A DNA stretch of 64,000 nucleotides from Auricularia sp. M13 (lineage: Eukaryota > Basidiomycota > Agaricomycetes > Auriculariales > Auriculariaceae). The position numbers and the translations under genes were made by a program. Each line of letters starts with the position of its first letter. Position 1 is the first letter of the stretch. The notes beneath the pieces are model-generated. The model searched no databases and had not been told where the DNA came from. It saw only the letters and a list, made by a program, of their open reading frames with translations. Below, piece after piece: positions 33,972-57,027 of this stretch. The DNA lies in NCBI GenBank assembly GCA_037042915.1, contig CM073193.1, positions 8,122,001 to 8,186,000 of the forward strand. The letters run 5' to 3'.

Positions 33972-34112
33972 TTAGCACACGATGGTGCCACTCGGCAGCT
34001 GCGCGCATCCCGCGGGGGGTTGCTCCTTCTCCTTGGCACGAGTGCTGAGGGCGGACGGGGTGGCAGCTACGAAGCTGGCGAGGGCGAGGACGGTAACGGT
34101 GAGGAAGCGCAT
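33972..34112 (-). CDS. Small secreted peptide precursor, C-x9-C family, copy 1
   Basis: A 46-residue single-exon precursor. Residues 1-17 (MRFLTVTVLALASFVAA) form a clear signal peptide with a cleavable TPS-like end. A short charged spacer follows (ALSTRAKEKEQ), then the conserved tail PPAGCAQLPSGTIVC, which ends at the stop (TAA, 33972-33974). The tail holds two cysteines nine residues apart and no others, so a single disulfide ring is possible in the secretory pathway. Four relatives lie at 39944, 40615, 55860 and 56881. It is too short for most gene finders. Upstream are a TATA box (34178-34183) and a 19 bp motif at 34268-34286. I do not know the family; it is not a CaaX pheromone because the last residue is the cysteine. 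Confidence 0.8.
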   Translation of the reverse strand: MRFLTVTVLALASFVAATPSALSTRAKEKEQPPAGCAQLPSGTIVC

Positions 34113-34177
34113 TGTAGCTTGGGCTTGAGCTTGTTCGGCTGGATGCTGGAGACATTCTTCTGCTCTGAAGAGCAGGC

Positions 34178-34183
34178 TTTATA
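34178..34183 (-). promoter_or_regulatory. TATA box of peptide gene copy 1
   Basis: TATAAA read on the minus strand, 66 bases before the ATG. It is followed by a leader block (34128-34148) shared with copy 2. Confidence 0.65.
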
Positions 34184-34267
34184 GCACTCGCTTCAGGTAC
34201 TCAACGGTCTCTGCTTCAGGCACCCTCGAGCGGCATTACTATCCGTTCGCATCGGATACTAGGTGAC

Positions 34268-34286
34268 GTCGCGGATAGTGCGCACC
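34268..34286 (-). promoter_or_regulatory. Shared 19 bp upstream motif, peptide copy 1
   Basis: Minus strand GGTGCGCACTATCCGCGAC, identical to the motif at 56666-56684 upstream of copy 5, and 17/19 to 40226-40244 upstream of copy 2. It lies about 85 bases upstream of the TATA box. Probable transcription-factor site. Confidence 0.6.
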
Positions 34287-34924
34287 GTCCATTGAGCATC
34301 ATCCGTCACCGACTTCAGGCGTGTCAAGTTGACGCAGATGTTCACCCGGAACTGTCCTGGTGATAAAACGCGGAACGCGTGCCTTACGAAGTGCGTTGAA
34401 GGACCTGCGTCTAGGATTGTCGGGTATCCAGGGTTTAATTAGGTATAGTAGGTGCGTCACGGTCATGTTGCAGCTATAAGCCTGCCACAGACTTCGCCAT
34501 TCCCGACAGACCCCGTTGCCATTCCTGTAGCAAAGCATTAAATCGAAAACCTTGCTATATTCTCATGCAGCGAGCCTGAATGCCAAGTCGCACATCAACA
34601 GCTGAGTATCGCCGCACCTTCAGGCGCTGGTCATCCTCGACAGAACAATCCCATGTCAGACCTCAGATCACCGCACTATGCACTTGATACACGAGCACAG
34701 ACGTACAGAGCACAGAATGGCATGTATACTGATCCTTGCGCAGCGCGTGAAAGCCTCAGCTCTTCACACCTAGGTAAACGGTACCTGGTGCTCGGACTCC
34801 ACGCCTCAGATGCGCCCTGGACCACCTCCGTCATGCATGTATGCACCATATTCCACTGGAGGCGTAGGACACACCTTTACTCGCGGAGCCACGACGAGTT
34901 TTTTCATGACGACGAAACTCTCGT
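34287..34924. other. Spacer upstream of peptide copy 1
   Basis: No coding signal recognised; promoter sequence and the 3' side of the next minus-strand gene. Confidence 0.4.
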
Positions 34925-37105
34925 TCAGATAGGGTGCTGGGAGACGAGTGCATATTCGTCCTCGTTCCACGGCCATTCGTCGCGCTCAAACCAGACCTCC
35001 GCCTTCTCCCGCGGTCCGGCGCCTACGGGAGAATGTACGCCCAACCCAGCGCCCCAAATGCCTCCCCAAACCCCGAATCCTTTGACGACGCCTTTGACAA
35101 TCTCGAACTCCGCATCGAAATGCTCGACACCCAGAACAGCGCGGTCTTTTTCCCCCAGCGGCGTGGTATAGCTAGTGAAGGTCGCGTTGAACTTGTTTCC
35201 GGAGAAATGCTGTAGGGCCAGCAAGGAGGGCGTCCCCCCGAGATTGTCCGTCCACGCGCGTAGAATCCCGTCTCCAGTGACGCGGAAGGCGAGCTTGCCG
35301 TATGCCGCGTTGGAATATGTGGCCGAAAGTCTCTCGACTGGAGCATCCGGAAGCGGCGCTTCTGGCGCTGCGGGTAGGCGACCAGCTTCGTCCTCTGCTC
35401 TGCGTTTGAGGATCTCCGTGTTGAGAGCTTTGTATCTGTTGATAGCGATGATTATGAGCTGCAGCAGCACATGAGGACGGAAGAGCTGGATCGAACCTTG
35501 CATTCCAATCAACACGCGCAGGAAGCCTGAGCAAATCCTCTGCAAGGCGCCATTTGATGGCCTCGTATAGATAAACACCATGGGCGTCTTCATTGGTGAG
35601 GACGGCGATGCCTATATTGTCGTTCGGAAACCGGATGATCTGAGAACGGTACCCCTTCGCAGAATCAGTCACGAAGGCTTGTGCGGGGCGAAGCCCGACT
35701 CACCAAGAGCGAGCCTCCATGTTCAACATACTGTGACCGTGGGTCAGTTTCAACAGCATGCATACATGCTGTTGCGTACCTGATGTCCTTGGTACGCAGA
35801 GATCCTGAAGCCCATGCCATACGTTTCGGGCCCGAGCTCGGGGATGTTCTCAGCACGGGGCATGACCGTGATACCCGAGGACATCTTGGCCACTAGCTCT
35901 GGAGGCAAAACTTGAGTACCAGTTTGGGGACTTCTCCCGTTACTGAGAAGGGTCTGAAGCCATATCGCCTTGAAAGAGAAAAGAAGGTACAGTATTAGCG
36001 ACAAGCATTTCGCGACCTTCAGGTTGCTGATGTCCCGCACCAGATCGTTTGCGTTCGATAGAATGCCACCAGCACCCACGTGCGACTTTGTGTCTACGAA
36101 CGTCGCGCGTCGCTTGCCGAGATGATGCAATGTTTCGCCTTCTCTCCAGAAGCCCTCAGCGAGATGACCGGCTGCAATCGCGCCGTCGACGTCGAATGTA
36201 GTAAGCTCGAAGCCAGCTTGCTTGAACATGTTGCGCTTCACGAACTCTTCGAAAGTCGAATTGGATTTTGCGGACACAATCGAGGCCCCGATGTTAAACA
36301 TGTGGTTGTTATACTGGCCAATGGGTAGGACAGCCTGAGCAGCCATTGTATAACCGATGAACTCACCTGCCACACGTCGCGAAACTCCGCGCTAGGACGA
36401 AGATGCTTTACTGATCTCAACTGAAAATTTGGCAGGTATTCAGTGCAAGTCGGTAGTGGAGCAACTGACGCACAGATAGTCCTGCTGGATCATCCAACTC
36501 TGAACGGAAGATGGCGTCGTGTCGCGGAAGGCCAGTACGGTGCGAGAAAGCGTCTACCAGATTGGCACCGCGACTCGCCAAAGGGTCTGCAAGCTCGAAA
36601 TCAGAGATTATATCGTGTATCTTTGTTGTCCAGTCGAATGGGATGGACTCGTTCGCGACGAGCAAGCCGACAGCTGCTACGGTGAACGCTTTAGTATTGC
36701 TTGCAATGGGCACAAGCGTCTACGATAATGTGAATACACAGAGTCTGAGCACTGTAAACGATGACAGCGTACGTCTGGAGTGAATTTGTCGCCCTTGCGG
36801 TTCTTGACGCCGAACGCGCGCGTCTCGACGTCGAAAGCATCTGAGTCTGGCCGCTTACGAACCACAGCAATGGATAGTCCCTGTGCATTCCAAAGCGCCA
36901 TAGTTTCGCGAACGAACTCTTCGACACCGGGCGGAATAAGCTGCCGTGCGTTGTACGCGGTGTGCGATGCCGGCGCGCGAGATGCGCTGATCAGGTCATT
37001 CGGAAGCCATTTGAGTAGCTCGGCCTGTTGAAAGGGAGAGCTAAGCCGCATGGTGTATACCGCGTATACGCTCAATGCTGGGATGAACAGCGTCTGTGGA
37101 CGCAT
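34925..37105 (-). CDS. Beta-lactamase-fold serine hydrolase, probably secreted or membrane-anchored
   Basis: It starts MRPQTLFIPALSVYAVYTM, a likely signal sequence, then FVRETMALWNAQGLSIAVV and AFGVKNRKGDKFTPD. The active-site SxxK is SNTK in MPIASNTKAFTVAAVG. The second motif Tyr-x-Asn is YNNHMFNIGASIV, and the third is HGGSL near 35710. HVGAGGILSNANDLVR and GPETYGMGFRISAYQGH are typical of class C beta-lactamase/PBP4-like hydrolases. The C-terminal domain (LSATYSNAAYGKLAFRV and FNATFTSYTTPLGEKDRAVLG) resembles the lipocalin-like extension of these enzymes. The end is at 34925. Introns are short and in frame. It lies between peptide copies 1 and 2, on the same strand as both, so a role in peptide turnover is conceivable but untested. 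It is distinct from the hydrolase at 20021. Confidence 0.8.
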
Positions 37106-38404
37106 CTAGTCCCGGGCCGCACGTGGGTGGCGGGTGAACGTTATAGATGCGCGGAAAACCAACCAACCAAGCCAACCAAGCCAACCAAGCTAAGGTCGGA
37201 CTATCGGATCAAAGGGCCCGATGATTGGGCCGAGCCGCCGACTCCCCGCATGACCGTCGACCGCGACGGCGGCCGCTCGGAAATTTGCGGCGCGGCACGG
37301 TTGCCTTCCCACCTCATCATTTTTTCTCGTCGTCGCCGCCGCCCGCCGCGCCGCCGCCGCCCGCCCCGCCGCCGCGGCCGTGCCCTCGCCTGCTGCCCTC
37401 GATGCGCCCGGTCCGCGTAGCTGTGGCCGTCGCTGGACTGCCTGCAAGGTCCTGAAGCTGCCGCGCGCCTGCTGCCCACCGCGTTGGCCGCTGTGCTCGG
37501 TGCACATTCTATGGCAGAAGGGCTGTGGATGGCACTTGGCGCCGCCAGGTCTGCCTTCTGTGTTCAGTGTGGCAAGGCATGACCGGTGACCCTGGGTGGG
37601 CGGACGCCGTGAACTTGCCCGTACGCTCCCTACGCACTCCCGCCTATGCACTGCCCTTCCCCACCCGTTATGCGCAATGTTATAGTCTGCTACTGATATA
37701 GCAATATAAGCATTATACCCGTTCTCCCCTACCTCGAGTGACGGCCCTTTTCTCTCCGTGAGCTGGTGGGCTGGTGCAGGGCCCTGGTCGAATTATAACG
37801 CATGCTGCAATGTGCAACACAAAGTCTTCGGTGACATGGGCAAGGGGTCCAGTAGCTCTCGACAGCTGAAGTATGCCTAGGTATCCCGAACTTCAGTCTG
37901 CGAGTCTAGGGTCGACCCGGTCTGTCAGTCTGCATGCACGACGCTGTTGGCGGTCGACTCCTTCGAAAGTTGCTATAGCGTGTACCACGCACAGCCCGGT
38001 GCATGCAGATTGCGCAGACCCGATGGCTCCGCAGACTACATCAGCGGCGCGAGCTGGTAGTGCAGCGTCTCGTTGAGCATTCATTCGGAAATAGGACGAT
38101 GAAGATCTAAATAGTGTAGGGTTGATTTTCTGTGTGATAGATATACTTGTCAAGCATTTGTCTATGATAGTTAGGCTTTATGCCTCCTGAGGCCTGAGGT
38201 GTATCGATAGACATGAGTAAGATCTCAGCGCTCCCGGAGAGTGCTCGGGCGCTTGAGCCCGAGTTCTCGGTGCGGCTTCCGTTTTGCCTCCGAGGCAGTT
38301 AACATCGTCTTAACCATGAGCTGGATGACTTTCATGACTCTCGATTAAGCTCAAAATAGTTATAATAGAAGCTAAAATGCAATGCCGAGAGGTTCCCGAA
38401 CAAT
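37106..38404. other. Gene-free stretch with simple repeats
   Basis: A CCAACCAAG repeat (about 37159-37193) is followed by a very GC-rich block of CGCCGC-type repeats (37320-37385). Open frames across it are composition artefacts. Confidence 0.45.
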
Positions 38405-39595
38405 ATCTTCGTGTTGGTTGGCTTGGTTGGCTCATCAGCAAAGTTGGGTTTTGCTCACGAGGCTCGTCAAGCCTCGTCGAGCCTCGTGAGCACTCAAGCG
38501 ACTCAAGCTCGTACACAAAAGGTCCGCCTAATTTTGTTCGGGCGAGCTCGTCAAGCGTCTCAAGCTTTGCCGAGCTTGACGAGCTTGAGTGCTTGAGCAG
38601 CTTGACGAGCTCAGCCGAGCTCAGCCGAGCTTGACAAACAATCAAAGCTTCGTGAGCTCGCGCGTCTCCGGCCTCTCCTCGCGGTCATTTCTGATTCATT
38701 GGGCCCCGTTATTTGTTCTCCAGGCCATAATGCAGTAGAAATCATAGTTTATAATTCAGTGGTTCAGATTATGCTTCACGATTATAGTATATACAAGCTG
38801 GCAAGGCAAGGACGCTGGAAAGGTGAGAAGCTGGACCTACAAGCGGTCTGGGAACCGACGCGCGTGTACGACGGCGTGCACAGCCTAAATAAGCTCTGGA
38901 GTCAGTGACGTGCAAACTGCGCAGCTGAGCGCCCGCACCTTTGCATCGTGAGTTGTGACACCTATAGACGACGGAAGGGTTAGTAAAGCACCAGCGGAGC
39001 AGATCTAGAACACAGCGCAGAAGCCGGGATAGATAGCAGACAACACAGCAGACCACTGAGCACAGAGTAGACCACAGAGAACAGCCACTGCAGCTAAGAG
39101 CCTAAGACAGAGTCCCCAGAGTAGAGCAAGTCCCGTACGGCCATAATCTAGAGCCAGTGTTCAAGTCCCATATAAGCACTGCGGGAGAGGGGAGGCCAGC
39201 GCGGCGCCAGTGCAAAGAACCGGGCAGCAGATGTTGGGAGAAGGAAGAGACTTAGTGAATTTCGGCGACCGCACACCGCGCTGCAGGAATCACCCGCCAG
39301 CGACCTTTCGAGGTCAAAAAAATCGTACGACCTTTCACAGCGAGACCAGGTGCTTGAGCTGCTTGAGGAGCTTGACCGGCTTGAGCCGTTTGGCAAGCTT
39401 GATCGTGCTTGGTGGAGCTCGACGAAGCTCGGCGAGGATTGCTGAGCTCCGACTTGCTTCTTACCGTTTCCCAAGGAGCTCTTACTCGACGGAGGAGCTC
39501 AAACTTGCTCAAATGCCTTGAGCACGGGAAAGCCAACCCGAGCCAGCTCGAGCAAAAACCAACTTTGCTGATGCTTGGTTGGTTGGTTTTCCGCC
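38405..39595. repeat. Fold-back element of about 1.2 kb
   Basis: The segment 38405-38650 and the reverse complement of 39345-39595 share GGTTGGTT-rich ends, the block CATCAGCAAAGTTGG, and long runs built from GAGCTTGAGC/CTCGTCAAG units. They are imperfect inverted repeats around a 0.7 kb centre that contains an ACAG-rich tract (38990-39090). It looks like a non-autonomous fold-back or MITE-like element, or a hairpin-forming low-complexity locus. No gene inside. Confidence 0.5.
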
Positions 39596-39943
39596 CATCT
39601 CCGACGCATTGGGTGGCGGCAAGTCGCGATTCACGCTCACGCAACTCCGATCCGCATCTTCTCGAACGCATGCGAGAAAATGTCTTCAGTAGATTAACCT
39701 GTGACCACTTCCAGTATTTCAAAGTATAGAATCAGGCTCGTGTATTTGTTCTCTTCGAGCAACATGGCCACTGGCAGTGCAGTTGAACTCTTGAACTCTG
39801 CCGGCACGCTACACTCAGAGACGACAACCCATATACATTGAGCAACATCCTCGTACTCAGTTCTGGACCGAAGAGAGACTTAAATTAGTTCAGGCAGCAA
39901 CCAACCGCGAAGCGAACCGTCCTCACCAGAGCATTAAGCACAT

Positions 39944-40084
39944 TTAGCAGACGATGGTGCCGCTGGGAAGCTGCGCGCATCCGGCGGGGGGCTGCTCCTT
40001 CTCCTGGACGCGAGTCTCGAGAGCGGAAGGAGAGGCAGCGACGAGGCTGGCGAGGGCGAGGACGGCGACGGTGGCAAAGCGCAT
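39944..40084 (-). CDS. Small secreted peptide precursor, C-x9-C family, copy 2
   Basis: A 46-residue single-exon precursor, the same length as copy 1. The signal peptide is MRFATVAVLALASLVAAS, the spacer PSALETRVQEKEQ, and the tail PPAGCAQLPSGTIVC ends at TAA (39944-39946). It differs from copy 1 at only a few residues in the mature part but has its own promoter, so this is a retained duplicate. The leader block GCTTGTTGGGCTGGATGCTG (40089-40108) is nearly the same as in copy 1. It has a TATA box at 40138-40143 and the 19 bp motif at 40226-40244. It is divergent from copy 3. Confidence 0.8.
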   Translation of the reverse strand: MRFATVAVLALASLVAASPSALETRVQEKEQPPAGCAQLPSGTIVC

Positions 40085-40137
40085 TGTTGCTTGTTGGGCT
40101 GGATGCTGAGGAACTCTTCACTCCGAAACCTCTAGGC

Positions 40138-40143
40138 TTTATA
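40138..40143 (-). promoter_or_regulatory. TATA box of peptide gene copy 2
   Basis: TATAAA on the minus strand, 54 bases before the ATG, in the same context (CTATAAAGCCT) as copy 1. Confidence 0.65.
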
Positions 40144-40225
40144 GGCCTTGCGTCAATCCCTGATATTTATCGAGCCTCGGGTACTCATTCTGTTCTCACT
40201 TCCGTCCTGGTCGGATTGCAGCAGC

Positions 40226-40244
40226 GCCGCGGATAATGCGCACC
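40226..40244 (-). promoter_or_regulatory. Shared 19 bp upstream motif, peptide copy 2
   Basis: Minus strand GGTGCGCATTATCCGCGGC, differing at two positions from the motifs of copies 1 and 5. It lies between the divergent copies 2 and 3 and could serve both. Confidence 0.55.
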
Positions 40245-40614
40245 ATCTGTCATGTCATCCATGCCTGGCCAACATCGATATCCGCATCTGCCACACCTGT
40301 TGGCCTTGGCATGTGTTGTTCCATTGCATTTCTCACTTGGGCATTGCGCTGATGAGCAGGACTCTCCGCTCGTCGTGCCTGATAGGTCTTCACGTATCAC
40401 CGGACTCAGGTTCATGAGTCGAGATGCTGTCAAGCATTATCTTCATACCCGCACTACGAACACTGAGCCCCTGCGCAGCTCTGGTCATGGGCAGGGCGTA
40501 CCTTTACACTCCAGCATGCTGATCCGTTTCGGTCGTGCATGAAACGTGTCGCCTTTGTGGAGACACATAAACTTCACCTCGTTGATTCCCTGCCACCTCC
40601 TGCCCATTACCACC

Positions 40615-40785
40615 ATGCGCATCATCGCCAATACCGTCAGCTTCATTCTCGTCGCGCTCTCTGCTGCCAACATGGCCAGTGCTCAGTGCTGGTCTCTCAA
40701 GAGTAGCACGGTCGTGTGCAACCCAGTCAAGGCGAACCTCACTTCGGGATGCGTCGAACTGCTCAGTGGAACCATCGTCTGCTGA
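40615..40785 (+). CDS. Small secreted peptide precursor with two C-x9-C units, copy 3
   Basis: A 56-residue single-exon precursor. The signal peptide is MRIIANTVSFILVALSAANM, ending ASA before Gln, a good cleavage site. The mature part has two units of the same plan: CWSLKSSTVVC (residues 25-35) and CVELLSGTIVC (46-56), joined by NPVKANLTSG, which contains an Asn-Leu-Thr glycosylation sequon. The shared consensus with the other copies is C-x-x-L-x-S-[SG]-T-[IV]-V-C, ending exactly at the stop (TGA 40783-40785). It has the most diverged sequence of the five. No strong TATA box; CATAAA lies at 40566. Confidence 0.75.
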   Translation: MRIIANTVSFILVALSAANMASAQCWSLKSSTVVCNPVKANLTSGCVELLSGTIVC

Positions 40786-41123
40786 AGGTAAAAGCGATGA
40801 TCCCTGACAAGTGTTATACCTGGACTGAACTTGCGTGAAGGATGTCCGGTACTCTTTCAACGGGAACGTAGTGTCGGCCTGAATTTGCTGTAACCTTGCA
40901 CAGGACTCGTCAATCCAGAGTTGTTTCGCGTAATGAGACCCAATGCTACGTACTTTGAACAGTAATACCTTGTGGCTTGAATACATCAAGAAAGTCTCAA
41001 AATGTCCATTCGAAAACGGTGACAATATGTATACGATGCAACCTGTCCCCAAGCGTCAATTCACGCAGGACAACAGCATGCCGAATAGAGCAATGCGCAC
41101 CTAAATTATCTACGCCCGCCTAT

Positions 41124-42314
41124 CTACAGCCGGATAACACCATTGCCATCCATCCCGCCCCCGCCGATTCCATGCCCATTGCCGTGCGTCTGGACGGGTT
41201 CGGGCCCACGCAGGTCGCGCTCGTCGATCTCGTCGTCGTCCAGTGTGAACGGGCCCTCGCTCCCGCCGCCCGCGAGCGGCTGCCGCGCCTCCTCGTCGTC
41301 TGTCGGTAGGCCCACGTATCCGCTACGTCCGCCATTGTTACCCTGCCAGCTGCGAGGTATGCCGCGTCGAAAGCCAGACGATGCGGGTGCCGGACGGTCT
41401 CGACGGAAGAAAGATATGCATGCAGCGGGCAGAGCGAGGAGTGAGGAGATGGGAATGCTGGGGATTATGTCTATCCCGCGGAGCTGGAGGACGTAGTAGT
41501 TGTAGACGACTGCGGCAGCGAGATATGCAACGAAGGCGATGCCGAAGCTGAGCTGCGCATGAGCAACCATTGAAAGCACATTTTGAAGAGCTGGTCGTAC
41601 ATGGATATGAACATTATAAGCATGCTGCCTAAGCTCGAGGCATTCGCAGGACACGCCGCCTGGGCGTTGAAAGATTAAGATCGTCAGTTGAAAGCTTCGG
41701 CGTAATGACCATGGGACGTACGGATGTTCGCCATTCAATGAAGAACGCGCACACCTTTTCATCGTCAGGCGGCAGCTGAGCGAGCATTTTGGGGGTGCCT
41801 GGGATCGAAAGTTAATATAGCTAGCGAGAATCGCGGGATTACTTGCCTACGCCCGCGCCAGTGTCGCATATGAACCGTATCGCAGTGCTGGCCTTGAGCC
41901 CGTTGGACCCGTTGCACTCTGCGCCTTCAGTCATGAACATATACGGCGAGCCGTCGATAAAGTCGAGGGTGCCGTTGGGCGTGCCCATGGACCTGTCGCT
42001 GCTCTTGCCGCGCCAGAACCCGCCGACCTTTTCTTCCCGGCCGCGCTGATTCCAGAGCTCGCTACGCACGGGCCCGCACACGTTGAGCTTGTATTTCTGC
42101 GAGCCCACCGGAGACGTCAGCTCGTAGTCCTTTCTGAGTGTGCGTCCCAGTAAGTATCCTGGTATCACTGCGCACGAGCGACGCACTTGGCTTGTAACGA
42201 GCGTAGGTCATAGCGCAGCCCCTTGTGCTCGAGCGTACAGGCATCGGCGCCGCGGGCTACGCTGGCCGCAGTCGCCGCGAGCGCCAGAGAAAGCGCCGTC
42301 CTCGCAGCCACCAT
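41124..42314 (-). CDS. Atg27/mannose-6-phosphate-receptor-homology type I membrane protein
   Basis: It starts MVAARTALSLALAATAASV, a signal peptide, then DACTLEHKGLRYDLRSL and, after an intron, YKLNVCGPVRSELW, RSMGTPNGTLDFID and FICDTGAGVGK. The spaced cysteines and the Cys-Gly-Pro block fit the Atg27/MRH lumenal domain. A further exon gives VCAFFIEWRTSTACP. The single transmembrane segment is FGIAFVAYLAAAVVYNYYVL, followed by GIDIIPSIPI, which is like the cytosolic start of cation-dependent mannose-6-phosphate receptors and Atg27. An acidic tail ends at 41124. It is expected in Golgi/endosome/vacuole membranes, in autophagy or sorting. Which of the two subfamilies it belongs to is not settled. 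Confidence 0.7.
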
Positions 42315-45074: not shown

Positions 45075-45350
45075 TCATCTTCCCTTCCCACACGCTGGCC
45101 AATTACCCATCTCACACGTCTCCAGTTACCCTTCCTGCACGATCTTTAACCCTTCCCACACAATCTTTATGCCTTCCTGCACGTGCAGTATGCCTTCCTA
45201 CACGTCCATTATTACCCTTCCCACACGCTCCAATAACCCTTCTAACACGTCCTTATAACCCTTCCTACACGCTGGTATTACCCTTCTTACACGTTCTTAT
45301 AACCCTTCCTGCACGTTCTAGTATCCCTTCCTGCACGCTCCCAGGGAGAA
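45075..45350 (+). repeat. Minisatellite inside the left inverted repeat
   Basis: About a dozen imperfect units of the type ACCCTTCC[TC][GA]CACG followed by 4-9 variable bases; a matching array in reverse orientation lies at 48240-48560. Confidence 0.75.
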
Positions 45351-46733
45351 CTCTAGTACACATCAAAGGAGTGCTCCAAAAATTCTGAAAACTGGATGAC
45401 AAATATTTAGAATTCAGATGAAAAATATTGGGATACTTATTAGGACCCTGGGCTCTGTGCATGATTTGATATCGAGTTTTCTTTCCTTTTTGGGTGGGTG
45501 CGAGTGATGCTGAACTCTACAGCACCAGAAACAGACTGCCATAAATTCCAGTTATACATTAATAAATCACCATAATACAAATAAAAAATACCTGGCCAGT
45601 TTGCGGAGTTCAATCGCATTTCCAAATCTGGTAACAAATCCTGTTTGAGCTCGCACTACAGCCTACATGGCACAACCATCCTTGAGTGCAAAAATACTGT
45701 TATATTGCAACTCATTCATGAGCATTGCCAGAGAGAGTAAGCAGGACTACATAGGAGCTGCAGACAAAACGGTAGGTGGGTTGAGCATACCCAATACATG
45801 AGAGAAGCGAGGTGGAGATGTTGAGGGAAAGGGGCTTTGAGTGTGTGATCAAAACCCTGAAAGTGAGTTATGGAGACAAGACAGAACCCAAGTTAGTATC
45901 TGAGGTGTTAGCAACTATGGATTGTGTGGGAGAGGAGGTAAGTGAAGCAGGTGTGTGCTTTGCCTTTGTGCCTGCACAGGGGAAGTCTATGACTGCATGA
46001 ACACGGTAAACACATGTATCGCAGATTGCGAGGAAATGACATCGTGGAGAGGGAATGGATAGTATGGAACCATGAGAGTCGGGACCATGCACCAGGGGAG
46101 CAGGAGGAACTGGATTTGAAGCCAACGGAGATGGCTGGGGGAAACTGAGATTTTGGTTTGGTACAAACTAGAATGGAGGACAAGTGCGAGGACAAGAACT
46201 GAGCTCCGGAAACTGTACCACTGGTAAGCTGGATGCTTGTGAGCCACTTTGCTGGGGGAAAACTACCTAACTACCAATTATACAGCAGAATGCCTAGCCA
46301 ACAAAGATCCCATTCTGAGCTGTACCAGAAATGTCCATGCAATAGGAAGAGTGCACGGAAGTCACATACAAGCTGTGATTGCACAAGGGTTGTGCACTTT
46401 GTGTTCATGAGCCAATGAGAATCGTTCTTGAGAGCTGGTGACTCAGCTTATTGCTCCAAGAAAGCCAGCCAATTGTCTATGTGAGTGCTGTGGTTGTATC
46501 TGCTGTTTTGATGACACAATGGACTGTGGGATAGCTTGATGCAATCACGATGACTGGGTTTCCCTAGTATGAGCTTTCGTGTTCTGCATGTCCCCAGTTG
46601 CTCAGGGTGCATATGCTCAGGGATGGTTGATAGGTTGGATTCCCTAGACCCAGGCCATGATATGGTCCACAATTTCAGTTTGTGATGTGTTTGCAAACAC
46701 ACAGATGCTGATAACAAATCACTGAATGAGTCA

Positions 46734-47764: not shown

Positions 47765-47782
47765 ATATATATATATATATAT
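47765..47782. repeat. AT dinucleotide microsatellite
   Basis: About nine AT units in the centre of the Mutator-like element. Confidence 0.9.
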
Positions 47783-48647
47783 TCTGTCCTTACTTGTCAT
47801 GCCGTCATTTCAAATCATTCTACATTCCTTTCACATCCCCTTCTTCCGTGCTCCCTCTTTCTGGCAATGCCCATGAATGAGTTGCAATATAACAGTATTT
47901 TTGCACTCAAGGATGGTTGTGCCATGTAGACTGTAGTGCGAGCTCAAACAGCATTTGTTACCAGATTTGGAAATGCGATTGAACTCCGCAAACTGGCCAG
48001 GTATTTTTTATTTATATTATGGTGATTTATGAATGTATAACCGGAATTTTTGGCAGTCTGTTTCTGGTGCTGTAGAGTTCAGCATCACTCGCACCCACCC
48101 GAAAAGGAAAGAAAACTCGATATCAAATCATGCACAGCACCCAGGGTCCTAATAAGTATTCCATTATTTTTTATCTGAATTCTAAATATTTGTCATCCAG
48201 TTTTCAGAATTTTTGGAGCACTCCTTTGATGTGTACTAGAGTTCTCCCTGGGAGCGTGCAGGAAGGGATACTAGAACGTGCAGGAAGGGTTATAAGGACG
48301 TGTAAGAAGGGTAATACCAGCGTGTAGGAAGGGTTATAAGGACGTGTTAGAAGGGTTATTGGAGCGTGTTAGAAGGGTGTTTGGAGCGTGTGGGAAGGGT
48401 AATAATGGACGTGTAGGAAGGCATACTGCACGTGCAGGAAGGCATAAAGATCGTGTGGGAAGGGTTTGTAGAGACGTGTAGGAAGGGTAATTACAAAGAT
48501 CGTGCAGGAAGGGAAAGTCAACGTGTGGGATGGGAAATGGAACGTGAGGAAACAGATTTTTGAGAGAAACGCACCGGGGAATGCTTCGCGGAATGAGGGC
48601 AGAGTCACGCTTTTGTTCAAGTCATTTGTAGCATTGTGGGAGTGCAT

Positions 48648-50507
48648 TTCTTCTTGAGCGAGGTGTGCGACAGTAGGGGAAAGGTGTTGGTCTATCTGCC
48701 CTCGATGTTCTTATAACGCCACGCGATAGGCGCTGTAAGTCCGGCACAGTGACATCTCCGTTAACAGACTTGGGGAGGATACATCCCTCACTGCTCCTCA
48801 GAGTTCGTCATCCACGTGAGGCCGCTCCAATCGGTAGAAAGCGTCATCTACAGTTCACCACCTTGAATCAGTCCATGCTCCTCTATCTCACTCAGCAACA
48901 CCGTTCTCTTCCTTATTCCCAGCAAAATAAAGCCATGTCAAAGGTGTCTGCATACGTGGCAAGTCATCAAACATTTTGGCAACACTGTAAGGCGCGATCG
49001 ACGATCCATCCATGCACCCTCTGTGGAAACGCCTTTGTTGGCCCTTTACGCAGTGTTCATATGACCCTGATGTTCAGGAACAGGACGGGCCTTGGACTCT
49101 TGGCGTCAATGGTTATTGTTTCTGTTCTAATGCTCTCTTCTGCCTGATTTTAAATCTGGTTGGCAGCGGCCGATAGGTCAAACTACATCGACTCTGTAAG
49201 ACAATGAGAGCCCGTCTCTGTGGAGCCCATCGTTCCCACGTATCCCATAGTTGCCTCCAGGGATCTGCCAATGCTGCCGTGTATGGGAGAATACGGCAAA
49301 TGAGACGCGCAGGGAACAATGGGTATAATGCGGTCGACGCGGACGGAGTGCTACCACTCGCATGTTTGGAAGCGTAGAGGACGTCCTTAACAGATCGTCT
49401 TGTCGCCGGCCGCTGTGCCGTCACCGGTAGACCGTCTGGCGGATGTCGGCATAGGATGAGCGCGAGCCCACAGCGGCTTTCTCTGACCAGACCGCATGCA
49501 GATCAGTTCCCCTTCCTCCTGAAGAAGGTGTTTCGTATCGCTGGATAAGCAAGACAAAAGCGGGAAGACGCCATGCTCGGCTAAAATGGTCAACAACTGA
49601 ACTGCATCCCGGGTTGATGTGAGACGACGTGGACGTGTGGTCAGCACGTTCCTGCCACGACGTGTTGCTATCGCTGGGAAGGTGCAAGTAATGTGGCACG
49701 ATGTGGCTCGTCAGCACGCGATGCGGTGCCTGAACGAAGCTTGGTCGCAGTCGACGGGGCCACCGCTACTCCTTACGTCGAGACGCCAGAGCAGCCCCCC
49801 AAGTGCTCGTGTGAATAAAATAACATTCGGCCGCTTTTAATGAGGTAGAGATTCCATCCCGAAGTTAAGATATGATAGGCCAGAGCTCCCGAACGCAGGC
49901 AACGCCACGCCTGTCGACTGTATCGAGTCTGATACAACCTCCGACCTGGATCGGGAACGCCGCATTGCTCTCTCCGTGACGTGACGGTTGAGAAAGGGCT
50001 TCCCAGGCGCACTGTCAAGGAGGAATGCAAGCTTATATGACCTTGACGGTTCCCTCGCGAATGCTGACACCTTTAGCGCCCTTGAGGGTGTTGAGGGCAC
50101 GTGACTTGATAGACTATTGTGGCCTTGCAGAATCTGAGATTTGTCATGTTGGGCATCATTATATCGGGTCAAAATGAACGACGCATCTGTCGCAACGGCT
50201 AGGAAACTATGATTCTGGATCGGAGCGTACACGCTAATATTTGAGGCCGGTTCGGAGTTTACACGCTCGTGCATAACTCCGATTAGCCACTGTTCTCGGG
50301 CTACAAAGTTTGGGTCACAAAGCTACCATGAGAGATTATGAGGTAAATAAGTCTACCAGAAGATATCCACTTATTATTTAGCAATCTTGGTGAGTAATTA
50401 TATCGCACAGTCAACCACACAGCGCGTCCGCCCGCTCGCCGGTTCAAGGACGTGTAAGAGTGGCCTGCTTCAAGGAGACGAAGTCAACCACGGCCTGAAC
50501 CGAAGAA
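48648..50507. other. Stretch without a confident gene
   Basis: Upstream region of the split zinc-finger gene, then spacer. Open frames at 48749-49147 (plus) and 49837-50274 (minus) lack recognisable domains. Confidence 0.35.
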
Positions 50508-51267
50508 CTACTCGGACGGCGGTGGAAGCGGAGTTTGCATTCTGAGCTTCTCGCGTTTCGGGCAGATTCCATGTGCTACCTTCCTATGCCGGTTGAGATT
50601 GCCAACGCAAGTGTAAACGCGACCACAATTTGCTTCGGTGCACTGCAGGGCAGCTGCACTGGAAATTAGAGGGGAGATATACGCAAGTGTACGGTGGCTC
50701 ACGTCGGCCCACAATGGCGCGGTCAATGAGCGTGCTTGATGGTCGTGATATGATAGGTGGGGTAGGAAACCTGGGCGGCGGGTAATGAGGCGCTGGTGAA
50801 GGCTTATGAGGCTTTCCGCATTGATCGTCACGGTCGTGTCGTGGAAGTTGCAAATACGTTCTCGGAGAGGATGCCGAACGCCCGGCTGGGCCTGGTGCAA
50901 ATGACTGCGCCGAAGGCAGGTAGACGGTGCTTGTCGCAAAGCGATCTGTCCTTCTATCGTTGTCTGTGCCCGGCAGAGCTGCTTCTGAGCTCATATGCAA
51001 GTGCTTGTTCTGGTAGGAATGTGTGAGATGGCCGTCCGAAGGTCATGGGGGAAGTCGCATACAAAGCGCAGGCTCTCCTGTATGCGCAGCTGCTTGTGCA
51101 TTATAGAGGTTGATTGCCGACTGGACTGGGGTCTCTCGTATATCAAAGAGTCTAGGAATGAATTGTAAGAGGGAGAAGTGTTATGCAAAGAAACACATGC
51201 CTGGAAACGCCTCGCGAAATGGGGGCAGGGAAACCTGAATGGCAGGACGCTGAGGATGACCCTGCAT
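50508..51267 (-). CDS. C2H2 zinc-finger protein, paralogue of the split gene
   Basis: The start ATG 51267 gives MQGHPQRPAIQVSLPPFREAF, the same first-exon motif as the split gene. Later exons carry a Pro/Tyr/His-rich middle. The last exon (50508 to about 50660, after a CAG acceptor) encodes CTEANCGRVYTCVGNLNRHRKVAH, a C-x4-C-x12-H-x4-H finger. A basic stretch (CPKREKLRM) and a Pro-rich end close the protein at 50508. A single finger with this spacing is common in small Agaricomycete regulators. The middle splice sites are uncertain because several frames are open, so coordinates of internal exons are not given. It gives the reference layout for the interrupted copy. Confidence 0.55.
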
Positions 51268-52706
51268 ACTTGTCGGAGGTGCGATGATAATGAGTTCTAC
51301 TGGAAAGAAGCTGTTATAAAGGACGAGGACTGCTTGACGCGGAGGTCCGACCGGGCCGTCTGCCACCGTAGCTGTGCGATGTCCTGGGAATCCCTACCTC
51401 GCCCTCGGCTCAAACTGACATTCGGATGGCGACTCTGCCACGCTGCGCGGCGCTTATTGCGCGCCCGGAGCTGTCGGCGTCCTGGGCCTAGGTGCGCAGC
51501 GCAGGTCAGTGGAGGGGATTCCTTCGGACAAACGTTTAACTACGAGCCCATGAGAAAGCTGTTGGCACAGGAACATAAGACTTCGGAATTCATGACATAC
51601 ACTGATGATAGCGGCGAGTAGACAAACACGTGCCATAGGCGTCTAGCATTGAACTTCATGTTGACGCGCAACGGCGCCGACTATGAGCGCCATGTTGCGT
51701 GTGGAAATACTGTCCTTGGGAGGCCATCCACGGAAGCGAGGATCCAGCCGCAGCGGCACGAGTCTGCGAGCCTGTTCATGAGCACCATTAGTCGGCGACT
51801 CGGACCGCTGTGACACTTTTCAACTCCGACAGTTGACATTCTTCCTTCGGACTTCCAAGTTCCAGACGCGCGGAAATGCACGGTATCATGCAGACTAGCA
51901 TGTCCAGGAGCTTCATCCCTTTGTTTCGCCGCCCATCTGCCTGTCGTGCAAACGCTAGCTGCCCTGCTGCGGCGTCGCAGCATCTTACAGAGCGCCGGTC
52001 AGCTTGACATCCGCCACAGCAAAGTTGCTTCACGCCAAAATTGGTCTAGGCCAGCTCTTGAGGATGAACGCTCTACGCACTCGCCGTCATGCTGTGCGTG
52101 GGAACCTATGGCGACGAACGGGCACTCTCTGAATGCCCGACAGTACGCTACTTAGCCTAATGCGGATGCTTCTGCCGACCTGCGGCCATGCTCTATACGC
52201 TGCTTTGGACTCTGCGGTGTCTAATATCATCTAAATGTTTTCATTTGGATCTCTGCTCTCCCTTCATGCCCGTTATGAGTTGTGCGCCTCTCATTTTTTT
52301 TTACGACGACGCCATCATACGAGGCCCAGGCTCGAGCAGATCTACGGTTGGGCACCCGTCTCATGTCGTTCCGAGGCATGATGGACCTACCTGAATGAGC
52401 TGTTTGATGAAAAGGCGTCACAGTCTCCGAGGAATGATCCTTCTATGATTACTTATTATGAGCTTCAACGCAGTTCGACCAAGTGGGGCCGCCTATCAAC
52501 TTGGAACATCGATTGGCGGAGAAGACGGAGAACACCAAAGAAGGGATTTTTAACTTTGTGTACTATGCATACAATGATCAAATGAACGAGTTCGGACTAT
52601 GTCGGAATCGAGTGTACATGAGTGAGTGCTCAGTGCATGGGGCGAAAGCAGGTTGCGGGCATGCAAATAAATGTAATGGATGGTAATATATGAGTGCAGA
52701 TTCAGT
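51268..52706. other. Stretch without a confident gene
   Basis: Only short or overlapping open frames; no domains or consistent splicing seen. Confidence 0.35.
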
Positions 52707-54787
52707 TCAGAGTGAGGGGTCGCCTGAGGAACCAGGCCGAGGTTCGGAAACCGTTCCAGGCCAAGGATCCTCCTGATGAGCGGGTAGAGACGCAGTAGGA
52801 AGTTCGAAGAGAGACTCGTTGACAGCACGAAGGCTTTTGGGCTTTGCGTCCTGGTCATAGGAGTACAGTCCCGGAGGTCCTGGGCGTCTGCCACTCCGCG
52901 AGCGTCCGCTGGCGTTGCTGCCGCGCCTCTCGCCTGTGTGAAAGACGGCCGGATCAGGCTGTATCCGCGCAGCCGCGTGCATCTCCACTGCGCTAGGCCG
53001 CGCGTATGACAGGCTGGGACCACGGTGACGGCGACGAGGTCGGGGGAGCGCGACCATGCCCATGAATGCGTGCATCTCGCCGTACATGTAATCCATCGGT
53101 CGACCGTAAAGATGCGTTGATGACGTCGTGCTTATCCTAGAATCCGTCCGTTCAAGGAGGCGCGGAGCATGCGGCAGAGTTGGAGGGAAAGTCTGATTCG
53201 GCGAAGCCGTCCCGCTGCGGCCACTGCGCGCAAAGCTGCCAGACGGACGAGAAAGTGAGGGAGGTTGAACGTCCTGAGACGAATCTTGGCCCGAATTGCG
53301 GCTGTGGGAATGCGCGTCCGATATTGCGCCCGTCGCTGATGCGTCGCGCCGGCCGCCGAGCCCCTCAGAAGCGTGGCCGGACACGTCGCAAGGGTGGATG
53401 TGTATCTCAGGCGGGATCTCCGGTGCTTCCGGGTTGGCGGTCGATACGGGGCGCTGCCACTGGAACAACGACGATTGGCGCTTCCGTTTGCGGCGTCGCT
53501 GAGCCCGTCCGTACGGGTCCTCGTCTGAAGACCACTCCAATTCTTCATCTTCCTCGTCCAACTCATGAAGCTCTTCGGCGCTTGAACGGCTGGAAGCCTT
53601 TTCAATCGGAGGAGCTCGAGGAGGCGTCGGAGTGGATGTCTCCTGCTCTCGTCTAGACCTCTGACATGACGGGAACAGTGATAATACCCACGCGCGCCAG
53701 GTGCGAAGGAATACAGGCTGTGAGGCGAAGAGGATGAACTCAACCGTCGGGGTGAATGCTGGACCGTCAAAAGTGTGAGCGCGGACCAGCCTGGAACGCA
53801 GAGAGTTGTGGATGTACGCACTTGTCCAGTACAGATCAAACTTCCAGACACCGCCAAGCAACCTATCATCGAGGCAGATTTCGCACAAGGTGATGATCGC
53901 GTCGAGGTAGATGATGAGTAACACGATCGAAAACCGCAACATGAGCCCGGCGTCGACGACGCGTCCACGTCTTGGCACTCCAGAATGGGTGGTGTAGAAC
54001 CGTAGGACGAACGCGAAAATGAGGACTGCAAGCACAACGCCGACGACCAGCGGGATGCCTATGAGACAGGCAGCAACGAGCTGATACAGGTAAGAGTCGA
54101 TTGTGCAGTAGCCCATGGGGGTGAAATAGATGGCGGGATGACCGCGCCGTGCAGCGTCAAGCAACACCGGAACGGCTAGGAAAATTGTGGGGAGCGCCCA
54201 GACGAAGGGCGAGACGGATAAGAGATACGGGAAGGGGAGCCTGACACGGGTTTTCGCCTTCCAGAGTTTGGAGCTTTGAATAGCGATCATGAGCATAGGC
54301 TGGCCGTCCCTCAGTGAGATACAGGAGATGACAAAACGGATCCGGTACTCACGACCGTGAAGCATATGGCGAAGAAAGCCTGTGCCGCGAGAAAGTAGTA
54401 CATTCTAGCGAAGAGCATCAGACCCGTGTCCAGACATCGTCTCGCATTACGCACAGCATCCCCTGAGCAGCGCAGAAGCGTGCGAGAGCCGAGCCCTGGA
54501 TTTCAAGTTGGCGGTCCTCAGTCTTCCATGGGAGGTGCGTGCGCATTTCGTGATATTGGAACGCGGGCAAGGCAGCGACAAGAGAGCGCGGGATGGCGGT
54601 CCATAGAATCGTGCTCACGACCGGATGGCGCGGGATTTTGCGCAGACTTCAACGCGAATGGCAACGTCAGACAGAGTTTAAGCAGATATATAGATCTGCG
54701 CACGCACTGTGCTGTAACGAATAGCAGGCTAATCAACGCGATGTTGAGCACATTAACCGCGACCAGCAGCGCCGCGCCGACATACAT
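52707..54787 (-). CDS. Multi-span membrane protein, possible 7TM receptor-like, with long cytosolic tail
   Basis: It starts MYVGAALLVAVNVLNIALIS (ATG 54787; an alternative ATG at 54863 is in another frame). Hydrophobic segments follow at RMYYFLAAQAFFAICFTVV, SPFVWALPTIFLAVPVLL, LVAACLIGIPLVVGVVLAVL and MLRFSIVLLIIYLDAIITL, with one or two more around 53690-53740, about six or seven in all. The C-terminal 330 residues are hydrophilic, with an acidic run (HELDEEDEELEWSSDED) next to a basic one (RRRKRKRQ), and many Ser, Pro and Arg, ending at 52707. This layout is seen in Agaricomycete 7TM proteins of unknown ligand. It is not an obvious STE3 pheromone receptor. It lies between peptide copies 3 and 4, which makes a ligand-receptor link worth testing but unproven. 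Confidence 0.6.
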
Positions 54788-55859
54788 CGGTCAGCGGGAG
54801 CAGCCACCCGGTCGGAGGAGTTGGGAAGAGGGAGAAGGTCAAGAGACGGCATCATCGTCAATCCTCCAGGAACCGGATATGGGCGTCTGAGGCTGTGCTC
54901 GCAATGATGATCAGACATTTACCGCCGCGCATCCCAAGCCGGGGAGTGTCAGGCACTGCAACTGCAACTCACTGCCCAGACCGCCCCGATGAGAAAAGAG
55001 AAGACGTCACGGTGGTCTCGAAAGAGGCTTCCCGGCGCTAACTTTGTTCCGCGAAACCAAGAAATAGGAGCCAGGGGGCCTCCGGAGTATTCGAGGCCCG
55101 CGTAAAATTTCAAAATGAGCTGAAACGCCTGCTGCCTGACTGTTGCTCATTCCAATGCTATTGTTACGTTTCGGATGGTGATTGGTTAAGCAGTAAGCGA
55201 CCAGGGTCCAGTGACGGCGGAAACACCATAAGAGGTTGTGGTAGTCTTCAAGCGAACGATGACCCCGCGAACGATGACCCCGCGAACAGTTGTGTCTGTA
55301 CCGATGTGAGCCCCGGCGTCCACTTTGCTCTGTCTTCGTCATTGCTTTCATACTGTGTATACTTTCGTGCCGAACCGAATAGTCGGAGGCAAAGATAAAT
55401 GCGGGTTGACAGTTTGACAGCTTCCCAAATGGAAACGCTTGCCAAATGTCTGTTTATATAATACACATCTTGGTAAGCGGCATGCGGGTCCCGTGCACAA
55501 AGGTTGGTGTACAGGGTGGGAGGGTCGGTCCGATGTTCTGCAGGTCGAGCTCATGTGGAACATTGAAGCGGGATGTGTCTTTGTAGGCCCATGATCCTGT
55601 ACTAACCTACTGTGCATGCCTTTGTGCTCATTTTGACGAGAACTTCGAATCAATGCATCCTCAACACGAGCTAGATACGGAAACAGACATTGGATGGCGG
55701 AAAAACGAGGATAACATGCAACTAGACTTCTGCGTACACAGTATTGCACAATACGTTCCCAATGTTCTGTGCTCCGCAGGAGAAGCTAAAACGAGGAAAG
55801 TCAGATACCAACGTTGCAGAAAGAGCATTCAGTATCGAACGGACCTTGCGACGCGACTT
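54788..55859. other. Spacer with a short tandem repeat
   Basis: GCGAACGATGACCCC is repeated head to tail at about 55252-55285. No gene recognised. Confidence 0.4.
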
Positions 55860-56006
55860 TCAGCACACAATGGTGCCGCTCGGGAGCTGAGCACACCCCG
55901 CGGGAGGATCGACCTTCGGGGGGTCAAGCCTGGCGGTGAGCTTTGCCGGAACGCTACTGGCGACAGCGAAGGCGGAGAGCGCAGAGAGGACGAGGAGGAA
56001 ACGCAT
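55860..56006 (-). CDS. Small secreted peptide precursor, C-x9-C family, copy 4
   Basis: A 48-residue single-exon precursor. The signal peptide is MRFLLVLSALSAFAVASS, the spacer VPAKLTARLDPPKVD, and the tail PPAGCAQLPSGTIVC is identical to copies 1 and 2, ending at TGA (55860-55862). The spacer has diverged in sequence while the last 15 residues have not, which suggests selection on the tail. A TATA box lies at 56056-56061. The 19 bp motif was not found upstream. It is divergent from copy 5, 0.9 kb away. Confidence 0.8.
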   Translation of the reverse strand: MRFLLVLSALSAFAVASSVPAKLTARLDPPKVDPPAGCAQLPSGTIVC

Positions 56007-56055
56007 ATTGTACTGTAGGTGCAGTGGTGAGATTGCGAACGTCTCTCCGCTCGTC

Positions 56056-56061
56056 TTTATA
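56056..56061 (-). promoter_or_regulatory. TATA box of peptide gene copy 4
   Basis: TATAAA on the minus strand, 50 bases before the ATG. Confidence 0.6.
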
Positions 56062-56880
56062 CTCTGCAGCGGTCTAATCGTAAGGCACAGAGAGGATGCC
56101 TGAGTTCTCTCAGGCTCCGAGCTGCACGCATCTCCTGTCAGGCGTCGATGTCACCTAGGCGCGAGTACGGGATCATGTCGGTGTAAGTCAGCGTGGTTGT
56201 ACAGCGGACCTTTCACTGACCCCAACAGTCTCAGTTGCGTGCTGGAGTTTTCACGTGAGACTATGGGGGTAACTGTCATTCTACCCTAAAGGAACGACAG
56301 ATGCGACCTGAGAAGGGCGAAGAGGTGACCCATGCATGTATCTCTAAGAGTATCAGTCCACTAGGGGATGGCCGGTCCTCGACCTCTCTCAGACCTGGAT
56401 GTCACGCGTTCAGACCGGATCATCCTAGCAGGTAGGATCTCCGGTTGCCCTCAAGATATCGTAGGACGTCGAAAGAACGGTGTTTGAGAGGATCGCATTT
56501 GCTCGATCCTGAGGTATCGTCAGAATTTCGCTGAAGTAGCTTGACGAGACAGAGAGGCAAGACCGCCCATAACCCAAGTCCTTAAGAAAAAGACTACCTA
56601 AGCAATAGCTCAGTGTTGCTCGACGAGGGAGAGTCGAGCTTGGACACGAGTGTCACTGGCAGATGGGTGCGCACTATCCGCGACCTGTCAGTGTTGCGCC
56701 CCCCACCTGTCAGTGTTGCGCCCCCCGCCAGCCGATATCCTGACATGTATCGCAGATCCGCTGGAGGCGGGAGGGTGCAGGGAGTACGAATTCAATTACA
56801 TGAGGAAAGAGGTATAAAAGCCTCAGCTCGTGCGGGGCGGTGGACAGTATCGAACAGCTTCACCGCAAGTCGAAAGCATC
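56062..56880. promoter_or_regulatory. Divergent region between peptide copies 4 and 5
   Basis: Contains the 19 bp motif GGTGCGCACTATCCGCGAC at 56666-56684, immediately followed by a direct duplication of CCTGTCAGTGTTGCGCCCCC (about 56684-56726), then a TATA box TATAAA at 56813-56818, 63 bases before the start of copy 5. No gene inside. Confidence 0.6.
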
Positions 56881-57027
56881 ATGCGCTTCATCACTGCCGC
56901 CGTCCTCGCCCTCGCCAGCCTCGTCGCGGCCACGCCGGCCTCCATTATTTCACGTGTCGCGGATAAAGACCTGGAGCAGCCGCCTGCTGGGTGTGCGCAG
57001 CTTCCTAGCGGCACGGTCGTTTGTTGA
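56881..57027 (+). CDS. Small secreted peptide precursor, C-x9-C family, copy 5
   Basis: A 48-residue single-exon precursor. The signal peptide is MRFITAAVLALASLVAAT, the spacer PASIISRVADKDLEQ, and the tail PPAGCAQLPSGTVVC has one conservative change (Ile to Val) from the other copies. It ends at TGA 57025-57027. A longer frame opens upstream at 56830 with no ATG in a better context, and ATG 56881 is the one that gives the signal peptide shared by the family. Promoter elements lie in the region before it. The Arg at the end of the spacer motif (SR, TR or AR in copies 1, 2, 4 and 5) may be a processing site. Confidence 0.8.
   Translation: MRFITAAVLALASLVAATPASIISRVADKDLEQPPAGCAQLPSGTVVC

What the first reader, a model, noticed from the sequence alone, without database searches (positions are those of the whole stretch)
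33972..57027. Cluster of five tiny secreted peptides that all end in a C-x9-C ring-like unit
Five single-exon genes (33972-34112 -, 39944-40084 -, 40615-40785 +, 55860-56006 -, 56881-57027 +) encode 46-56 residue precursors. Each has a signal peptide and a tail of the form C-x-x-L-x-S-[SG]-T-[IV]-V-C that stops at the last cysteine. In four of them the final 15 residues are PPAGCAQLPSGT[IV]VC, with Arg before a variable charged spacer. Signal and spacer vary while the tail is fixed, the pattern of a processed secreted peptide. The two cysteines could form an 11-residue disulfide ring. I know of no named family with this tail. I infer a secreted signal, effector or defence peptide; the function is open.
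Basis: partly seen in the sequence, partly recalled or inferred. Interest (0 to 1): 0.88.

Follow-up and report, generated by a model that had tools for sequence, protein, structure and literature searches.

The report
Fungal secreted two-cysteine ring peptide family
A fungus, probably a wood decayer, carries a small family of tiny, probably secreted peptides whose last eleven residues, bounded by two cysteines, are held almost constant while the rest drifts; they look like precursors of a ring-shaped signal peptide, but no function has been shown.

Summary
The five reported genes are real and correctly placed. They belong to a family of at least 12 genes in this 52 Mb fungal genome: 8 'A' genes (signal peptide, Arg, spacer, one C-terminal ring CAQLPSGT[IV]VC) and 4 'B' genes with two such rings. 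A and B stand head to head at 3 loci plus a near-identical copy of one. The A tail is under strong purifying selection among the paralogues (pN/pS 0.08, against 0.84 in the signal and 0.70 in the spacer), with synonymous sites heavily changed, so the pattern is neither chance nor recent copying. A TATA or TATA-like box lies 55-87 bases before every A start. Rare promoter words mark the genes: a 17-mer found 3 times and a 21-mer found twice in the genome, each time upstream of these genes. No Pfam or PDB match of weight. Relatives in other fungi could not be searched. Best reading: a secreted, probably disulfide-closed peptide signal with a two-ring partner. Secretion, processing, ring closure and function are inferred. 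It is not a CaaX mating pheromone.

The parts
33972..34112 (-). A-type precursor A1, 46 aa: signal peptide, ...STR, spacer AKEKEQ, tail PPAGCAQLPSGTIVC
39944..40084 (-). A-type precursor A2, 46 aa; head to head with B1 (530 bases between the two reading frames)
40615..40785 (+). B-type precursor B1, 56 aa: signal peptide, then two ring units CWSLKSSTVVC and CVELLSGTIVC
55860..56006 (-). A-type precursor A3, 48 aa; head to head with A4 (874 bases between the two reading frames)
56881..57027 (+). A-type precursor A4, 48 aa, tail PPAGCAQLPSGTVVC
34270..34286 (-). shared promoter word GGTGCGCACTATCCGCG, 174 bases before the A1 ATG
40228..40244 (-). shared promoter word GGTGCGCATTATCCGCG in the A2/B1 common intergenic region, 160 bases before the A2 ATG
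56666..56682 (+). shared promoter word GGTGCGCACTATCCGCG in the A3/A4 common intergenic region, 215 bases before the A4 ATG
34178..34183 (-). TATAAA of A1, 71 bases before ATG
40138..40143 (-). TATAAA of A2, 59 bases before ATG
56056..56061 (-). TATAAA of A3, 55 bases before ATG
56813..56818 (+). TATAAA of A4, 68 bases before ATG

Best explanation
These are genes for a family of secreted peptide signals of a basidiomycete fungus. A-type: the signal peptide is removed; the precursor is then most likely cut after the single invariant Arg ([STA]R | [AVL]), freeing a 20-23 residue peptide whose last 11 residues close into a disulfide ring (C-AQLPSGT[IV]V-C, with the last Cys at the C-terminus). 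The constant ring is the part that meets a receptor, transporter or other fixed partner; the N-terminal spacer is free to drift. B-type: no Arg step; the secreted product carries two rings in tandem and acts with or against the A peptide. Several A and B genes share a promoter region and rare promoter words, so they are probably switched on together. Shown: the genes, the paralogue family, selection on the ring among paralogues, the head-to-head pairing, the TATA boxes and the shared promoter words. Inferred: secretion, Arg cleavage, disulfide, signalling role, co-expression and A/B partnership.
For: All 16 ring units (8 in A, 8 in B) fit C-x2-L-x-S-[GS]-[ST]-[IV]-V-C. A tail pN/pS 0.083 with pS 0.61, against 0.84 (signal) and 0.70 (spacer), on 7 of 8 A genes; the eighth, A8, encodes the same protein as A7 and was left out. 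B ring 1 ratio 0.30, ring 2 0.10, on 3 of 4 B genes, the copy B4 left out. Arg kept in 8 of 8 A precursors, each before A, V or L. TATAAA in 6 of 8 A genes and GATAAAA in the other 2, which are copies of one locus. Exact 17-mer 3 times in 52 Mb, all upstream of these genes; reversed-pattern control 0. Exact 21-mer twice in 52 Mb, upstream of A5 and A6, none further with up to 2 mismatches, control 0. Head-to-head A/B pairs at 3 loci plus one copy. Short strands at the ring ends in both AlphaFold2 models. Net charge of predicted mature A peptides 0 to -3, not lytic-type.
Against: No transcript, peptide or phenotype data. Conservation was seen only among paralogues of one genome. No receptor identified. 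AlphaFold2 confidence is moderate (mean pLDDT 68 and 67, pTM 0.25 and 0.36; alignments of 7 and 3 sequences). The A7, A8, B3 and B4 promoters hold neither promoter word, and the 4 B genes show no TATA box in the same scan. The 15-base core of the 17-mer also occurs at 3 places away from these genes. No dibasic site in any of the 12 precursors, so cleavage after a single Arg is a guess. A fixed ring would suit an enzyme inhibitor or a structural role too.
Confidence: 0.5

Rival explanations
1. Small secreted inhibitor or ligand of an extracellular enzyme: the constant ring is a rigid loop that plugs a protease or another secreted enzyme of the fungus or its rivals.
For: A short disulfide-braced loop with a fixed sequence is a usual inhibitor design (recalled). 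An M28-type peptidase piece lies between the A5 and A6 genes (L011:3049-3630) and a beta-lactamase-like piece between A1 and A2.
Against: No match of weight in Pfam for A1 and B1 or in solved structures for B1 and the A alignment. The neighbouring enzymes that were identified differ from locus to locus.
Confidence: 0.15
2. Secreted effector acting on a plant or microbial partner.
For: Short, probably secreted, cysteine-bearing, orphan, multi-copy: the usual profile of small secreted proteins.
Against: The tail is under purifying, not diversifying, selection among paralogues. The genome has 16 matching places of the fungal peroxidase extension domain, which suits a wood decayer more than a biotroph; that does not exclude an effector aimed at other microbes.
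Confidence: 0.15
3. Membrane-active antimicrobial peptide.
For: Tiny secreted cystine peptides are often antimicrobial (recalled).
Against: Predicted mature A peptides are neutral or acidic (0 to -3); the 15-residue tail holds no charged residue.
Confidence: 0.08
4. Wall or surface component: the ring units are cross-linked or assembled in the hyphal wall, in the manner of the Ustilago Rep1 peptides, which control hyphal wall properties (passage of PMC6339444).
For: B has a repeated unit; the tail is uncharged.
Against: Only one or two units per precursor; very small.
Confidence: 0.09
5. Chance open frames or a low-value repeat.
For: The loose C-x9-C-stop form is common by chance.
Against: The tail pN/pS of 0.083 at pS 0.61, the absence of the strict motif in 30 simulated windows, the boxes before the A genes and the promoter words.
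Confidence: 0.01

Closest known systems
Qsp1 quorum-sensing peptide of Cryptococcus neoformans
   Same: Basidiomycete peptide, secreted as a pro-peptide, matured outside the cell by a protease and acting as a signal (passages of PMC7537855).
   Different: I recall Qsp1 as a linear 11-residue peptide without cysteines from one gene; here a two-cysteine ring unit from many paralogues. Sequence relation not tested.
Ascomycete alpha-type pheromones and KEX2-processed repeat proteins (KEPs)
   Same: Secreted precursor, proteolytic release; one alpha-pheromone subgroup has two conserved cysteines, and the motif RFCHLPGQGCSK is given for one species (passages of PMC6339444), with a proline between the cysteines as here.
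   Different: That survey required at least four fragments after cutting at KR/RR (or KK); the precursors here hold one or two units and no dibasic site. It also left out the C-terminal part of each protein, so it would have missed these.
Basidiomycete mating pheromones (CaaX, STE3 ligands; features recalled)
   Same: Short precursors, several per genome.
   Different: No CaaX box (the residue at -4 is T or S), a signal peptide is present, and the STE3 matches lie on another contig.
Orphan small secreted proteins of Agaricomycetes
   Same: Signal peptide, very short, cysteines, no Pfam domain, multi-copy.
   Different: A very short, fixed C-terminal ring unit, head-to-head A/B pairing and family-specific promoter words.
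Somatostatin-like C-terminal ring hormones (comparison recalled)
   Same: A cysteine ring closed by the very last residue of a secreted precursor.
   Different: Animal family; no sequence relation claimed or tested.

Membership tests
Basidiomycete CaaX mating pheromone | C-terminal CaaX box (definition recalled) | tested here: not met
   12 of 12 precursors end [TS]-[IV]-V-C
Basidiomycete CaaX mating pheromone | Linkage to STE3 receptor genes | tested here: not met
   5 of 5 STE3 matches lie on C7 at about 1.49-1.54 Mb; the peptides are on C1, C9 and C12
KEX2-processed repeat protein / alpha-pheromone | Several repeats separated by dibasic sites | tested here: not met
   No KR, RR, KK or RK in 12 of 12 precursors; one or two units only
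KEX2-processed repeat protein / alpha-pheromone | STE2-type receptor in the genome | tested here: inconclusive
   No PF02116 match, but the control genomes did not ring either, so absence is not shown
Qsp1-type quorum peptide | Short precursor with a signal peptide in a basidiomycete | tested here: met
   Translations with a hydrophobic N-terminus (hydrophobicity for 4 of the 5 window genes); secretion itself not shown
Qsp1-type quorum peptide | Sequence homology to Qsp1 | not tested
   No Qsp1 sequence was fetched
Qsp1-type quorum peptide | Extracellular maturation and import through an oligopeptide transporter | not testable with these tools
   Needs experiment
Cationic antimicrobial peptide / defensin | Net positive charge | tested here: not met
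   Predicted mature A peptides 0 to -3; B not computed
Hydrophobin | Eight cysteines in a set order (recalled) | tested here: not met
   Two (A) or four (B) cysteines in the translations; Pfam scan of A1 empty, of B1 only an unrelated match below cut-off (2 of 12 proteins scanned)
Orphan small secreted protein | Signal peptide, short, no known domain | tested here: met
   signal peptide judged by eye and hydrophobicity, no SignalP available

The most novel reading that the evidence does not exclude
A previously undescribed peptide-hormone system of mushroom-type fungi: a single-ring disulfide hormone (A) and a co-regulated two-ring partner (B), encoded as divergent gene pairs under dedicated promoter elements. 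The putative multi-pass membrane protein gene beside the A3/A4 pair (about 52.7-54.9 kb) is a candidate, though so far unsupported, receptor.
Probability: 0.3. Interest if true: 0.8.

Novelty: new variant of a known kind. Interest (0 to 1): 0.55.

Why it matters
As far as I recall, secreted peptide signals other than mating pheromones are almost unknown in mushroom-forming fungi. A family with a fixed 11-residue core can be tested directly: the ring is easy to synthesise, the 12 genes are mapped, and the promoter words give a handle on the regulator. It also shows a class that a repeat-based survey for fungal signalling peptides would miss, because the constant part is single and C-terminal (survey design: passages).

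Tried and rejected
Mating-type locus: rejected, all 5 STE3 matches are on contig C7. Peptide-receptor linkage: a search with 288 residues of the putative membrane protein (window 53500-54365) finds only itself in the genome, so no paralogue of it stands at the other peptide loci; its Pfam and PDB matches are weak and unrelated (E 0.71 and 0.61); kept only as part of the bold reading. Ninth A hit, C1:8361250 (L009): weak (E 0.08); the DNA around it looks like an intron-bearing gene of another kind (read by eye); dropped. A weak hit of B1 to A6 (E 1.07) is the known A6. Bacterial hits from the prokaryote scan (2 of 21 pattern stretches): taken as chance, neither keeps the SGT[IV]VC end. Viral contigs: 0 of 3 stretches confirmed. 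Wider regulon of the 17-mer: the 5 one-mismatch sites (frames starting within 600 bases) and the 3 extra 15-mer sites (only 30-120 aa frames with a hydrophobic start, within 700 bases) showed no similar peptide; the reversed control of the 15-mer gave 1 match. Looser forms of the word near A5/B2 and A6 were found after loosening the pattern, so they carry less weight; the loose form also occurs once in the window away from these genes and once in 35,059 other bases, at a site that had itself been fetched as a one-mismatch match. Literature: 8 full-text searches, for four fragments of the tail, found 0 papers. No paper describing this family was seen in those listings.
Full report
WHAT IS THERE. 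The five reported frames exist where stated, and a six-frame scan finds the strict tail before a stop nowhere else in the window. Thirty simulated windows with the same neighbour-base frequencies hold none, while the loose form C-x9-C-stop occurs about six times per simulated window (187 in 30; 16 in the real window); so it is the sequence of the tail, not the cysteine spacing, that is beyond chance.

THE FAMILY. The window is C1:8122001-8186000 of a 52.1 Mb genome in 14 contigs. Whole-genome searches with one window A protein, the window B protein, an outside B protein and an outside A protein converge on the same set: 8 A genes (4 in the window; C1:8857008 = A5, C1:8860064 = A6, C12:866751 = A7, C9:292742 = A8) and 4 B genes (40615 in the window = B1; C1:8856143 = B2, C12:865835 = B3, C9:293600 = B4). 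One further weak hit (L009, E 0.08) was dropped. The C9 and C12 loci lie in stretches 97.0 and 98.3% identical over 9.3 and 4.3 kb, a recent duplication or the second haplotype of the strain, so the independent count may be 7 A and 3 B. The search tool calls its counts of large families lower bounds.

ANATOMY. A: M-R-F, hydrophobic signal, short stretch ending in [STA]-R, variable spacer of 5-8 residues, then PP[AS]GCAQLPSGT[IV]VC-stop. The Arg is kept in 8 of 8 and followed by A, V or L. B: signal peptide, then C[WF]xLxS[SG]TVVC, a linker, and CVEL[LF]SG[TS][IV]VC-stop, with no Arg step. All 16 ring units fit C-x2-L-x-S-[GS]-[ST]-[IV]-V-C, and none of the 12 precursors has a dibasic site. AlphaFold2 puts two-residue strands at both ends of the A2 ring (pLDDT 77 and 83 for the last two blocks) and strand residues at the ends of both B1 rings (68-82 by block); global scores are low (pTM 0.25 and 0.36) and the alignments hold 7 and 3 sequences. 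This fits hairpin rings but does not prove them.

SELECTION. On 7 of the 8 A genes (A8 encodes the same protein as A7), pN/pS is 0.083 in the 15-codon tail, against 0.84 in the signal and 0.70 in the spacer; pS in the tail is 0.61. So the tail has been kept for a long time by selection on the protein, and is not a recent or converted copy. B rings: 0.30 and 0.10 on 3 of 4 genes. A1 and A2 form an ungapped 150-base repeat of 84% identity that covers the gene plus 9 bases upstream of its start; a further near-match of 20 bases lies just before it in the leader.

PROMOTERS AND ARRANGEMENT. Within 200 bases before the ATG, 6 of 8 A genes have TATAAA and the other 2 (copies of one locus) GATAAAA, 55-87 bases before the ATG; none of the 4 B genes has either. 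A and B stand head to head at window 39944/40615 (530 bases between the frames), at C1:8.856 Mb (718) and at C12 with its C9 copy (724); A3 and A4 stand head to head as well (874). Pairwise ungapped comparison of 500 bases upstream of 10 of the 12 genes (the C9 copies left out), apart from the pairs that share one region, brings out three stronger matches (scores 21, 19 and 17.5; six shuffled trials, one strand only, reached at most 13): a 21-mer shared by A5 and A6, a word shared by A1, A4 and, with one difference, A2/B1, and the leader match of A1 and A2. Over the whole genome GGTGCGCAYTATCCGCG has 3 exact matches, all in the intergenic regions of A1, A2/B1 and A3/A4, with none for the reversed control; about 0.01 would be expected by simple base counting (my estimate). 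Five one-mismatch sites lie elsewhere without such a gene. Its 15-base core has 6 matches, 3 of them elsewhere, and 1 control match. The 21-mer AATAATCGCCGCCATCCGTCA has 2 matches with up to 2 mismatches, both exact and upstream of A5 and A6, control 0; the A2/B1 site read on the other strand agrees with it at 15 of 21 places, so the two words may be one old element, which is my inference. A looser form of the 17-mer occurs in the A5/B2 region and as three tandem 26-base units before A6, but not at the C9 and C12 loci, and once in the window away from these genes (22809).

SETTING. STE3 matches (5, all on C7) point to a basidiomycete and show that the window is not the pheromone-receptor locus. 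Sixteen places match the fungal class-II peroxidase extension domain (places, not genes), which suits a white-rot wood decayer. The organism itself was not identified. The neighbours that I identified differ between the loci: beta-lactamase-like piece, complex I 49 kDa subunit, M28 peptidase, ubiquitin hydrolase, dienelactone hydrolase, F-box protein; only selected frames were scanned (20 proteins in two calls), so a shared neighbour could have been missed.

MECHANISM. The pattern fits a secreted peptide whose ring must fit an unchanging partner. I rank a signalling peptide first (about 0.5), then enzyme inhibitor and effector, wall component and antimicrobial. The likely wood-decay setting and the lack of diversification speak against an arms-race effector; neutral to acidic charge speaks against a lytic peptide. 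Secretion, cleavage after Arg, ring closure and receptor are inferred.

KNOWN OR NEW. No Pfam match for A1 and only an unrelated one below cut-off for B1; no solved structure for B1 and only E 7.4-7.5 matches to a signal-peptide-like start for the A alignment; no text hit for four tail fragments. The large protein database was switched off, so absence from other fungi is not claimed. The survey of 250 fungal secretomes (PMC6339444, passages seen) required four or more fragments after cutting at dibasic sites and excluded the C-terminal part, so it would not have listed these genes. Qsp1 (PMC7537855, start of the abstract and passages seen) is the nearest known case of how such a peptide could work. 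PMC10949477 and PMC4649063 were seen in the start of the abstract and in passages only; all other papers only in search listings.

Noticed in passing
window 52707-54890, minus strand: Putative multi-pass membrane protein (strong hydrophobic segments, long Ser/Arg-rich tail), found once in the genome, no Pfam family of weight; its 3' exon frame ends about 3 kb and its upstream part about 1 kb from the A3 gene. Candidate orphan receptor.
   Followed up: partly
window 2864-3154 and 17784-18074: 291-base inverted repeat, 100% complementary, 14.6 kb apart; looks like a mobile or recently duplicated piece.
   Followed up: no
window 45214-45743 and 47849-48378: 530-base inverted repeat, 96% complementary, 2.1 kb apart: a possible transposon with long terminal inverted repeats.
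   Followed up: no
window 15440-16141, plus strand: Weak alpha-kinase domain match (PF02816, E 7.9e-4, 20 bits against a cut-off of 21.3).
   Followed up: no
L011:4645-4719: About three tandem 26-base units GCGGCGAGAGTGCGCATTTCCGATGC upstream of the A6 gene, resembling the window's promoter word.
   Followed up: partly
C9:283-303 kb and C12:856-876 kb (L013-L016): Two pieces of 9.3 and 4.3 kb, 97.0 and 98.3% identical, in opposite orientation: segmental duplication or second haplotype in the assembly.
   Followed up: no
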